This document shows, piece after piece, positions 14,568-27,885 of a DNA stretch of 64,000 nucleotides. The translations under genes were made by a program, and so were the position numbers. Location: NCBI RefSeq assembly GCF_001984155.1, contig NZ_MTQO01000053.1, forward strand, positions 1-64,000, in the 5' to 3' direction. Under the pieces are notes generated by a model. That model made no database searches. It was not told the DNA's origin and was given only the letters and a program-made list of their open reading frames with translations. How positions within the stretch are numbered: position 1 is the stretch's first letter; each line of letters starts with the position of its first letter. The DNA is from Actinosynnema sp. ALI-1.44 (GTDB taxonomy: Bacteria > Actinomycetota > Actinomycetes > Mycobacteriales > Pseudonocardiaceae).

Positions 14568-14656
14568 CAGGGGCGGTTTGTGTGGGGACGGACGCACGGA
14601 CCCGCCCCCACCAGCACCCCACACATGTTGCTCCACACACCCGCCGTGCCGGGCAG

Positions 14657-14730
14657 TGTCCTCACGAGGACTCGAACCTCGGACCTCGGCGTTCGTAGCG
14701 CCGCGCTCTGTCCACCTGAGCTACGAGGAC
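14657..14730 (-). tRNA. tRNA-Arg(ACG), second isoacceptor gene, attenuator-linked
   Basis: The 74-base cloverleaf has acceptor GTCCTCG/TGAGGAC, discriminator A, a D-arm with GCTC/GAGC, anticodon arm CGGCG-CTACGAA-CGCCG (anticodon ACG) and T-loop TTCGAGT. CCA is not encoded. The anticodon loop resembles E. coli tRNA-Arg(ACG). The window also has a sequence-distinct tRNA-Arg(ACG) at 27687-27759 that looks like the usual actinobacterial one, so this copy appears to be extra. Its 5' end lies two bases after the U-tract of a strong terminator. No promoter fits in between, so its transcript must read through that terminator. Confidence 0.93.
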
Positions 14731-14732
14731 GG

Positions 14733-14807
14733 AAAAGAAAAGAGCCGCCTCATCGGAAGTCCGATTGGGCGGCTCTCGCGCTGTGCTTTCACTCAGCGCT
14801 GAGAGCC
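14733..14807 (-). promoter_or_regulatory. Candidate transcription attenuator of tRNA-Arg(ACG)
   Basis: Two mutually exclusive structures are visible. The terminator is a 9-bp stem (14776-14768 with 14749-14741, core GAGCCGCC/GGCGGCTC) carrying a small inner ATCGG/CCGAT hairpin, followed by TTTTCTTTT. The antiterminator pairs 14807-14794 (GGCTCTC, one bulged A, GCGCTG) with 14783-14771 (CAGCGC GAGAGCC), 13 bp in all. Both use the segment GAGAGCC at 14777-14771. The antiterminator left arm is formed by codons 21-24 and the stop of the 24-codon leader, so a ribosome finishing the leader would block it. Confidence 0.7.
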
Positions 14808-14867
14808 GTCCTGACCTGCGCGGAAGCACATGTCGCGGTCGTCTTCACTGTGACGCCATGCGTTCAT
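14793..14867 (-). CDS. 24-residue leader peptide upstream of tRNA-Arg
   Basis: This is a very short reading frame with an excellent ribosome site (AAAGGAGG, eight bases before ATG). The peptide starts MNAWRHSEDDRDM and ends in QR. Its four Arg codons (CGT at position 5, CGC at 11, 16 and 24) are all of the class read by tRNA-Arg(ACG), the gene that follows. Its last four codons lie inside the antiterminator stem. It has no similarity that I recognise and is best read as a regulatory leader rather than a functional protein. It follows the GNAT gene on the same strand but has a promoter-like sequence of its own. Confidence 0.68.
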   Translation of the reverse strand: MNAWRHSEDDRDMCFRAGQDGSQR

Positions 14868-14901
14868 TTTCGCTTCCTCCTTTCTCGGTTTGACGAGAAT
14901 T

Positions 14902-14931
14902 ACTATGACGCATTCCCGCGCAGTGGTCCAA
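14902..14931 (-). promoter_or_regulatory. Candidate promoter of the leader/tRNA-Arg unit
   Basis: On the minus strand TTGGAC and CATAGT are spaced by 18 bases. This would give a start site about 28 bases before the leader ATG and leave room for its Shine-Dalgarno sequence. The match is moderate. Confidence 0.4.
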
Positions 14932-14934
14932 CGA

Positions 14935-15507
14935 TTATTCGGCCGGGCGGACAGGCGCGGGCCGATTGGCGCCCGGCCACGGCTCGAAGCGTTCACCGTC
15001 CGCCTGCGACTTCTCCACGTGTTCCTCGACCCGGTACACGGTCATGCCACGGGCCTTGTAGTTGTTCAGCGCCTGCGCGCTGTCCAACGTGTTGGTGTGC
15101 AGCCACACCCTGGTCGTGCCCGGGACGGCCCACGCCGCCTCCAGGACGCGGGTGAGCAGGTATCCGCCGAGTCCCCGGCCGATGAACGACGGCACCAGGC
15201 CGAAGTTCTCGATCTCCACGTCGCCGCCGTCGCGCCGGGTGAGTTCGGCGTACCCGGCAGGCGTGCCACGGACCCACAGGACCCAGGTCTCGTGTCCCGG
15301 CGTGGTCAGCCAGTCCATCCACTGCTGGTAGTCCCAGTTCACGTTGTGCGCCCAGTACCAGTCGCTGCCGACGGCGGTGTAGAGGTACCTGTTGAACTCC
15401 GGTGACGGCTCCTCCGCCCGTACGAACCGCACATCGATGTCGGGCTTTGCCGAAGGTTTGACCTGGTCGGGACTGGTTTGCTGGAGGTAGTACCTGGTCG
15501 CGAGCAT
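14935..15507 (-). CDS. GNAT family N-acetyltransferase
   Basis: This 190-residue protein has the GNAT fold. The acetyl-CoA pyrophosphate loop is IGRGLGGYLL (about residue 108), and it is preceded by the beta-4 strand VEIENFGLVPSF. The N-terminal half is aromatic-rich (SDWYWAHNVNWDYQQWMDW). Similar stand-alone proteins are common in Actinobacteria with no defined substrate. It lies directly upstream of the leader/tRNA-Arg unit on the same strand. No antitoxin gene is adjacent, so there is no basis for calling it a tRNA-acetylating toxin. The ATG at 15507 has no clear Shine-Dalgarno sequence. Confidence 0.82.
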   Translation of the reverse strand: MLATRYYLQQTSPDQVKPSAKPDIDVRFVRAEEPSPEFNRYLYTAVGSDWYWAHNVNWDYQQWMDWLTTPGHETWVLWVRGTPAGYAELTRRDGGDVEIENFGLVPSFIGRGLGGYLLTRVLEAAWAVPGTTRVWLHTNTLDSAQALNNYKARGMTVYRVEEHVEKSQADGERFEPWPGANRPAPVRPAE

Positions 15508-15648: not shown

Positions 15649-16925
<1,277 letters not shown>

Positions 16926-16943
<18 letters not shown>

Positions 16944-16970
16944 GGAGTGCATGCGATTGCGATTCGTCAT
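16926..16970 (-). CDS. 14-residue leader peptide upstream of tRNA-Asn
   Basis: The short frame encodes MTNRNRMHSGGSPP. Both Asn codons (positions 3 and 5) are AAT, a codon that is rare in this high-GC DNA. They lie just before the antiterminator arm, where ribosome stalling would leave that arm free. Asn and Met are the residues matching the two downstream tRNAs. No Shine-Dalgarno sequence is visible before the ATG, and no upstream in-frame start exists (TGA at 16994-16992), so translation is the weak point of this call. Confidence 0.5.
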
Positions 16971-27664: not shown

Positions 27665-27686
27665 GAGCAGGGTCGCCCTGAGGACG

Positions 27687-27759
27687 CGCACCCGAAGGGA
27701 TTCGAACCCCTAACCTTCTGATCCGTAGTCAGATGCTCTATCCGTTGAGCTACGGGTGC
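27687..27759 (-). tRNA. tRNA-Arg(ACG), canonical
   Basis: The 73-base cloverleaf has acceptor GCACCCG/CGGGTGC, discriminator G, anticodon arm TCTGA-CTACGGA-TCAGA (anticodon ACG) and T-loop TTCGAAT. It has the form usual in Actinobacteria. It lies 37 bases after tRNA-Ser(GCT) on the same strand. No terminator adjoins its 5' end, in contrast to the other tRNA-Arg(ACG). CCA is not encoded. Confidence 0.95.
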
Positions 27760-27796
27760 TTGTTCAGTTGTCGCTCGGCCGAGGCCGAACGTACTG

Positions 27797-27885
27797 CGGA
27801 GGCTCCGGGATTTGAACCCGGGAGGGGTTTTATCCCCAACCGCATTAGCAGTGCGGCGCCATAGACCAGACTAGGCGAAGCCTCC
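27797..27885 (-). tRNA. tRNA-Ser(GCT)
   Basis: The 89-base class II tRNA has acceptor GGAGGCT/AGCCTCC, discriminator G, anticodon arm CCGCA-CTGCTAA-TGCGG (anticodon GCT), a long variable arm (GGGGATAAAACCCC) and T-loop TTCAAAT. It is probably co-transcribed with the downstream tRNA-Arg. CCA is not encoded. Confidence 0.95.

What the first reader, a model, noticed from the sequence alone, without database searches (positions are those of the whole stretch)
14657..14931. tRNA-Arg(ACG) appears to be controlled by a leader-peptide attenuator
Seen directly: on the minus strand a 24-codon frame with a perfect AAAGGAGG site has four Arg codons, all CGT/CGC, the class read by the tRNA encoded next. 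Its last four codons form the left arm of a 13-bp stem that excludes a strong terminator. That terminator's U-tract ends two bases before the tRNA 5' end, leaving no room for a separate promoter. Established knowledge: amino-acid operon attenuation uses the same geometry, with cognate codons, an antiterminator arm and a terminator. Inference: stalling at Arg codons 5, 11 or 16 leaves the antiterminator free and the tRNA is made, while a ribosome reaching the stop covers the arm and transcription ends. I know of no tRNA gene described as regulated by its own cognate leader peptide.
Basis: partly seen in the sequence, partly recalled or inferred. Interest (0 to 1): 0.92.

Follow-up and report, generated by a model that had tools for sequence, protein, structure and literature searches.

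The report
Self-sensing switches on backup tRNA genes
In this soil bacterium and its relatives, spare copies of tRNA genes sit behind a stop signal, and a tiny peptide gene rich in exactly the codons those tRNAs read probably lets them be made only when the cell runs short of them.

Summary
The window lies in Kibdelosporangium (Pseudonocardiaceae). Its tRNA-Arg(ACG) follows a promoter-like site, an SD, a 24-codon ORF, an antiterminator hairpin and an overlapping terminator. A second copy, for tRNA-Asn/Met, lies at 16692-16970. The genome has five strong matches, before 17 tRNA genes with 17 anticodons, each duplicating a housekeeping anticodon at 56-83% identity.

Of 160 related elements not picked for tRNAs, 149 have a tRNA gene within 300 nt downstream. 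Leader codons mirror the downstream tRNAs: 26.0% are read by the element's own tRNAs against 12.8% after shuffling (84 non-redundant leaders, z=16, 0 of 20,000), and not in the two other sense frames. Antiterminator arms pair far better with their own partner than with swapped ones. Many promoters carry an A/T box placed as in WhiB7/WblC promoters.

Best reading: codon-specific leader-peptide attenuation of backup tRNAs. For this Arg leader alone the codon bias is not significant (3 Arg of 19, p=0.34); the case rests on the family. No expression data were available.

The parts
14925..14939 (-). A/T box AATAAT (14939-14934), 3 bp, then -35-like TGGACC (14930-14925; TTGGAC if read one base upstream)
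   Evidence: geometry as in WblC/WhiB7 promoters
14902..14907 (-). -10-like CATAGT, 17-18 bp from the -35
   Evidence: CATAGT kept in 7 of 8 Kibdelosporangium upstream regions, CAGAAT in G005
14876..14883 (-). Shine-Dalgarno AAAGGAGG
14793..14867 (-). 24-codon leader ORF MNAWRHSEDDRDMCFRAGQDGSQR
14770..14808 (-). antiterminator hairpin; left arm is the end of the ORF, right arm includes the 5' arm of the terminator
   Evidence: arms of homologous elements co-vary in a swap test
14733..14777 (-). intrinsic terminator hairpin (14777-14740) with U-tract to 14733
14656..14730 (-). backup tRNA-Arg(ACG), 69% identical to its nearest housekeeping counterpart with the same anticodon
16926..16970 (-). 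second leader ORF MTNRNRMHSGGSPP (Asn, Asn, Met codons), no recognised SD
16893..16940 (-). second antiterminator hairpin, -27.1 kcal/mol
16866..16900 (-). second terminator hairpin, ending in a TTTTGTTTT tract
16789..16861 (-). backup tRNA-Asn(GTT)
16692..16763 (-). backup tRNA-Met(CAT); found by ARAGORN but not among the Rfam tRNA matches

Best explanation
A ribosome-mediated transcription attenuator controls a backup tRNA gene and senses the decoding of that tRNA's own codons. Shown by sequence and comparison: the anatomy, its conservation, the in-frame match of leader codons to downstream tRNAs across the family, co-variation of the antiterminator arms, and the backup nature of the tRNAs. 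Inferred: RNA polymerase starts at the promoter upstream of the leader, probably helped by WhiB7/WblC during translation stress. If the tRNA is plentiful, the ribosome reaches the stop codon, covers the left arm of the antiterminator, the terminator forms and the tRNA is not made. If the tRNA is scarce (uncharged, cleaved or depleted), the ribosome stalls on a cognate codon upstream of the arm, the antiterminator forms, and polymerase reads on and makes the backup tRNA, which then shuts its own switch. A leader that is not translated at all would also read through.
For:: mutually exclusive hairpins sharing one arm; 29 of 30 pattern loci lead into tRNA genes; 120 of 130 model-found loci do so within 300 nt; codon match z=16 in frame, z 0.9 and -0.6 in the other sense frames; z=15.6 with one leader per distinct codon set (71); one random leader per genus (15 genera, 200 draws) gives mean z 5.7, minimum 3.77; z 5.5 within Kibdelosporangium, 2.7-5.2 within five other genera; 232 of 244 array amino acids occur in their own leader (0.951 against 0.658 shuffled); own antiterminator arms pair better than swapped arms, z -11, 0 of 5000 swaps (80 leaders); loop region between the lower arms folds better than shuffles (mean z -2.1, 76 of 81 below 0); cognate codons are fewer in the last three codons before the arm (0.19 against 0.34 in the next three), where a stalled ribosome would itself cover the arm; all 17 controlled tRNAs duplicate housekeeping anticodons. 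A/T box before the -35; a WhiB-family protein with an AT hook in the same genome.
Against: No expression, term-seq or translation data were available. Arg codons are not significantly enriched in this leader alone, and it has at least as many Asp codons without an Asp tRNA in the operon. In G005 the ORF found by eye, MITNRTVLRRTADDRDW, stops about 20 nt before the arm, and the blind ORF choice there gave another, unmatched ORF. In G007 the conserved Arg codon is AGG, not read by ACG. 5 of 84 leaders have no cognate codon and 8 of 84 rank in the worse half; 5 of 84 have no recognised SD, among them the second leader in the window. The last three codons still match above background (0.19 against 0.10), and the match also falls to 0.19 at 19-30 codons from the arm, so the position effect is not clean. 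11 of 169 elements have no tRNA called downstream. One antisense frame shows an excess (z 3.2). On the plain sequence alignment of 34 sites the upper stem shows no more pairing or covariation than column shuffles (68.2% against 67.5%).
Confidence: 0.86

Rival explanations
1. General translation-stress attenuator: any slowing or absence of leader translation (ribosome-targeting antibiotics, general starvation) gives read-through, as known to me for whiB7-type uORF leaders (recalled); the codon content is secondary.
For: An untranslated leader also favours the antiterminator; WhiB7-type promoters; long arrays have leaders that sample many amino acids, e.g. L196 and L154; the Arg leader alone is not Arg-enriched.
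Against: The specific codon match across 84 leaders, also within single genera and for single targets such as Cys, Leu or Tyr, would not be needed.
Confidence: 0.1
2. The short ORF encodes a stable small protein with its own terminator, and the tRNA downstream is independently promoted.
For: Good SD and a DDRD motif kept in the genus.
Against: Two bases between U-tract and tRNA leave no promoter room; ORF ends overlap the antiterminator arm in relatives (stop at +12 from the arm start in 57 of 84); peptides differ between loci while tracking the tRNAs; among the five equal-length leaders of the genus, nonsynonymous codon differences are as many as synonymous ones or more in all nine pairs that differ.
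Confidence: 0.03
3. Nascent-peptide arrest rather than codon hunger: the conserved DDRD stretch stalls the ribosome on a small-molecule or drug signal.
For: DDRD is present in all 8 Kibdelosporangium leaders, G005's being the ORF found by eye.
Against: No peptide motif shared across the loci listed was noticed besides the GSPP-like end that the stem imposes; codons follow the tRNAs instead.
Confidence: 0.04

Closest known systems
Classical leader-peptide attenuators (trp, his, pheST; in Actinobacteria trp operons, trpS and leuS were predicted: PMC1262725, passages read)
   Same: Leader ORF with cognate codons, antiterminator and intrinsic terminator, stop codon positioned on the switch.
   Different: Targets are tRNA genes themselves, not biosynthetic or synthetase genes; two hairpins sharing one arm; many parallel copies, each with its own codon set.
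Anabaena trn operon and its repressor TrcR (PMC10272220; abstract, outline and Discussion read)
   Same: Extra tRNA genes kept silent and switched on by translation stress; an RNA-repair gene (rtcB) in the same regulon.
   Different: There a ribbon-helix-helix repressor controls one 26-gene operon; here cis-acting leader peptides control many small operons one by one.
WhiB7/WblC regulon (PMC3905903 passages; PMC7157823 passages and two sections)
   Same: A/T box 3 bp upstream of the -35; six tRNA genes reported in the S. coelicolor WblC regulon.
   Different: No leader-peptide control of those tRNAs was described in the parts read; WhiB7 dependence here is inferred from promoter shape only.
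tRNA array units of mycobacteria and phages (PMC5966550, PMC12803027; passages read)
   Same: Duplicate tRNA sets that differ from the chromosomal copies, HNH endonuclease neighbours in some groups, proposed anti-defence role.
   Different: Here the set is split over several operons and a regulatory device is visible; the words leader and attenuat- do not occur in the main text of either paper.
T-box elements
   Same: Sense tRNA charging and control termination (recalled).
   Different: No leader ORF in T-boxes (recalled); no T-box match here at E<=1.

Membership tests
Leader-peptide (ribosome-mediated) transcription attenuator | Short ORF with ribosome-binding site upstream of the controlled gene | tested here: met
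   recognised SD in 79 of 84 non-redundant leaders
Leader-peptide (ribosome-mediated) transcription attenuator | Mutually exclusive antiterminator and intrinsic terminator | tested here: met
   swap test; null on the plain alignment
Leader-peptide (ribosome-mediated) transcription attenuator | Regulatory codons cognate to the controlled product, this locus alone | tested here: inconclusive
   3 Arg of 19 codons, p 0.34
Leader-peptide (ribosome-mediated) transcription attenuator | Regulatory codons cognate to the controlled product, across the family | tested here: met
   z 16.2, 0 of 20,000 shuffles; holds under stricter sampling
Leader-peptide (ribosome-mediated) transcription attenuator | Read-through depends on ribosome position in cells | not testable with these tools
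   needs reporter or term-seq
WhiB7/WblC regulon | A/T box about 3 bp upstream of the -35 | tested here: met
   A/T run then TTG in 51 of 84 against 3.6 in shuffles; A/T 0.82-0.98 at -8 to -5 for 56 TTGAC sites chosen by position only, mean of the region 0.40
WhiB7/WblC regulon | WhiB7-like protein in the genome | tested here: met
   L345, WhiB domain plus RGRPRK AT hook
WhiB7/WblC regulon | Expression depends on WhiB7 | not testable with these tools
   needs RNA-seq or ChIP
tRNA array unit | Dense cluster of many tRNA genes | tested here: not met
   one or two tRNAs per operon in the window; long arrays occur in relatives, e.g. L196
T-box element | Match to the T-box covariance model | tested here: not met
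   no match at E<=1

The most novel reading that the evidence does not exclude
A two-key emergency system for tRNA loss: a translation-stress activator opens the promoters of dispersed backup tRNA operons, and each operon's leader peptide then releases only the tRNAs whose codons are actually starving, for example after an anticodon nuclease has cut the housekeeping copies. RNA-repair enzymes are wired to the same switch. It would be a codon-resolved counter-defence shared by Pseudonocardiaceae, a second actinobacterial family and some phages.
Probability: 0.4. Interest if true: 0.96.

Novelty: new variant of a known kind. Interest (0 to 1): 0.92.

Why it matters
Nine full-text searches listed no paper that, by title and start of abstract, describes tRNA genes controlled by a leader peptide made of their own codons; seven of the nine lists were cut, and no preprints or most subscription papers are held. 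If right, cells can sense and replace individual tRNA species, not just amino acids. It gives the unexplained tRNA arrays of actinobacteria a testable role, and each leader names the tRNA species whose loss it watches for.

Tried and rejected
Chance: the reversed control pattern gave 2 matches against 31 places in the same 297 genomes. In the named genomes 32 of 84 stretches led into a tRNA; one of these (L081, Halomonas) is a coincidence of tRNA 3' ends; of the other 31, 26 bear titles of genera that I take to be Pseudonocardiaceae (Kibdelosporangium and Lentzea checked; the rest recalled), one is titled Rhodococcus rhodnii but has the length of a contig of G003, and four titles were not shown. 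Known RNA: the best sub-threshold Rfam hits besides tRNA in the two devices (RcsR1 26.7 bits against 60; BcKCsr2 23.3 against 40) are treated as chance. A sigma-70 scan reported no promoter. Isoacceptor-level choice of codons was weaker: z 6.0 on all rows, 2.75 on non-redundant ones, against pooled usage. A count of upper-stem pairs on the plain alignment of 34 sites gave nothing beyond column shuffles; the pair types come from each sequence's own fold and so lean towards pairing; the swap test is the test that I rely on. Outside the family: in 394 class genomes 4 had a match at E<=0.001, two of them in family f1; in 297 genomes of the family of G532, 35 had a match at E<=0.01 and 7 of the 30 loci fetched led into a tRNA. 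Of 8 loci examined (these 7 plus L317 of the home family) the top-scored ORF matched its tRNAs at p<0.05 in 3 (L355, L366, L367).

Rows dropped or chosen: 169 loci were examined: 130 model-found, 30 pattern-found, and 9 picked because they led into tRNAs. Pattern and model were themselves made from sites before tRNA genes. The 11 loci without a called tRNA and 2 without an ORF (L163, L175) were left out of the codon test (156 rows, 84 clusters, 6 of whose representatives are among the 9 picked). Without the 9 picked, 149 of 160 have a tRNA within 300 nt. The listing was cut, so the 130 are the stronger matches. In the own genome two weak matches (E about 0.04, one of them the other strand of the finding) were set aside.

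Full report
What is there. On the minus strand the order is A/T box and promoter-like hexamers (14939-14902), SD AAAGGAGG (14883-14876), a 24-codon ORF (14867-14793), an antiterminator hairpin (14808-14770), a terminator hairpin that uses part of the right arm of the antiterminator (14777-14740), its U-tract to 14733, and tRNA-Arg(ACG) at 14730-14656. The two hairpins are about equally stable alone (-27.5 and -28.0 kcal/mol) and the whole leader folds better than all 200 shuffles (z -4.28).

Where it is. All 8 genomes of the genus held, own included, have a match. In 7 the leader ORF is recognisable, with an SD-like site, DDRD(M) and a stop on the antiterminator arm. In the eighth, G005, the region has diverged: its ORF MITNRTVLRRTADDRDW ends earlier. 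CATAGT at the -10 position is kept in 7 of 8.

It is not alone. A pattern for the three arms (GGCTCY ... RGAGCCGYC ... GGCGGCTYYTTY) found 31 places in 30 of 297 family genomes, with 2 for the reversed control. 29 of the 30 fetched lead directly into tRNA genes, from single genes to long arrays. A covariance model built from 34 such sites found matches in 125 of 297 genomes (E<=0.01), up to 6 per genome. Of 130 model-found loci examined, 120 have a called tRNA within 300 nt downstream. In the named genomes 32 of 84 pattern stretches led into a tRNA, one of them a coincidence. Of 10 viral stretches with the pattern, one, with a large tRNA array, also leads into tRNAs (L154).

The leaders mirror the tRNAs. 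Leaders were chosen by SD, start codon and stop position, blind to their content. Examples: MTQSRTQELLLLLLLLSCADSPP before Leu, Leu (L265); MTNTRRCCSRSQGSPP before Arg, Cys (L169); MVHMKRTDLHCCCPGSPP before Cys (L273); MKSKLECQSSKLELSLELGRLLV before Glu, Leu, Leu, Gln, Ser, Lys, Cys (L182, own genome); MKATGFAVAAIVADDRDDLFFWHLTCAVSP before Trp, Asp, Phe (L190, own genome); MTNRNRMHSGGSPP before Asn, Met (L187, in this window). With codons of the stem arm and the start codon left out, and one leader per 50%-identity cluster (84), 26.0% of codons are read by the element's own tRNAs against 12.8% (sd 0.8) when tRNA sets are shuffled: z 16.2, 0 of 20,000. The two other sense frames give z 0.9 and -0.6; the three antisense frames give 0.9, 3.2 and -0.5. 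One leader per distinct codon set (71) gives z 15.6; one random leader per genus (15 genera, 200 draws) gives mean z 5.7 and minimum 3.77; within Kibdelosporangium z is 5.5, within five other genera 2.7 to 5.2. 232 of 244 array amino acids occur in their own leader, 0.951 against 0.658 shuffled. The choice of codon within an amino acid follows the isoacceptor more weakly (z 2.75 on non-redundant leaders). Results against: 5 of 84 leaders have no cognate codon, 8 of 84 rank in the worse half, and the Arg leader of the finding has 3 Arg of 19 codons, p=0.34.

The switch itself. The stop codon lies at +12 from the start of the left arm in 57 of 84. The loop region between the lower arms folds better than shuffles (mean z -2.1, 76 of 81 below zero). 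In each sequence's own fold the upper stem uses different pairs at the same place (GC 22, AT 19, CG 6 at one position and CG 18, GC 18, AT 5 at another, of 57). The stricter test swaps arms between loci: own left and right arms pair at -9.17 kcal/mol on average, swapped ones at -6.44 (sd 0.25), z -11, 0 of 5000, 80 leaders; with one per genome z -10. A count on the plain sequence alignment of 34 sites showed no excess over column shuffles, though more than with slid partners; the loop aligns poorly there. Cognate codons are fewer in the three codons next to the arm, 0.19 against 0.34 in the next three (backgrounds 0.10 and 0.14), the expected place for a gap, since a ribosome stalled there would cover the arm; but the match is also 0.19 at 19-30 codons away.

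The tRNAs are backups. The genome has 65 distinct tRNA genes by ARAGORN on fetched stretches (63 by Rfam, which missed two backups). 17 lie behind the five attenuators. They carry 17 different anticodons, each also present among the 48 others, at 56-83% identity. So the genome keeps a divergent spare for 17 anticodons, spread over five switches.

Upstream input. 51 of 84 leaders have an A/T run shortly before a TTG hexamer against 3.6 in shuffles and 4 on the other strand. At 56 TTGAC sites chosen only by position, A/T content at -8 to -5 is 0.82-0.98 with a regional mean of 0.40. This is the geometry reported for WhiB7 and WblC promoters (PMC3905903 and PMC7157823). The second device in the window shows no such site in the consensus scan. 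The genome encodes a WhiB protein with an AT hook (L345). The S. coelicolor WblC regulon includes six tRNA genes. In M. abscessus, VapC5, which cleaves one tRNA, raised whiB7 more than any other transcript (PMC10287673; abstract and one section read). WhiB7 control of the present operons is inferred, not shown.

Non-tRNA targets. Among 11 elements without a called tRNA, two (L261, L267) lead to similar proteins of which one was tested and has a HAD_SAK_2 RNA-repair domain (PF18143), and two (L041, L279) to similar proteins of which one was tested and has an HNH endonuclease domain. HNH genes are also reported in about 87% of one group of mycobacterial tRNA arrays (PMC5966550). One leads to an amidohydrolase; others show what look like decayed or interrupted tRNA-like sequence, or nothing recognised.

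Beyond the family. In the family of G532, 7 of 30 fetched loci lead into tRNAs. Some have different stem letters that still pair, for example GGTTCCC with GGGAACC (L348). L367 has MDHEVDRIRRRGRTRSRVRLVSRWRCR (one of two equally scored starts of one frame) before Arg, Val, Arg. Of 8 loci tested, including one of the home family, 3 matched at p<0.05.

Judgement. Leader-peptide attenuation is a known mechanism, and actinobacterial cases before trp operons, trpS and leuS were predicted earlier (PMC1262725, passages). Its use on tRNA genes, with each leader spelling out the tRNAs it guards, was not seen in the listed titles and abstract starts of nine searches, most of them cut lists. I therefore rate it a new variant of a known kind with high interest. 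What is missing is any measurement in cells.

Noticed in passing
window 27686-27759 and 27796-27885: Housekeeping-type tRNA-Arg(ACG) next to tRNA-Ser(GCT), with no attenuator match listed there, in contrast to the backup copy at 14656.
   Followed up: partly
L261, L267: The same kind of leader and attenuator precedes a gene for a HAD_SAK_2 RNA-repair domain protein (Pfam run on L267 only).
   Followed up: partly
L041 (same sequence as L127), L279: The same attenuator precedes an HNH endonuclease gene (Pfam run on L041 only); L041's leader is Cys-rich.
   Followed up: partly
L338 (G000 contig 36, about 207600-208180): Backup tRNA-Leu(CAG) and (GAG) are only 74-75 nt long, with a short variable arm, unlike the usual long-arm tRNA-Leu (the comparison with the usual form is partly recalled); how they are charged is open.
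   Followed up: no
L199, L245 just downstream of the attenuator: tRNA-like sequence whose two halves look interrupted by an insert of some tens of nt (by eye).
   Followed up: no
L183, L193: Attenuators followed by what look by eye like decayed tRNA-Tyr-like and tRNA-Asn-like genes that ARAGORN does not call.
   Followed up: no
L154 (IMG/VR contig, 81.9 kb): Viral contig with a large tRNA array behind a matching antiterminator-terminator pair and a 45-residue leader, without recognised SD, that samples most amino acids.
   Followed up: partly
window 14793-14867 and L190: The Arg leader and the Trp-Asp-Phe leader of the same genome share the stretch DDRD; perhaps common origin of leaders.
   Followed up: no
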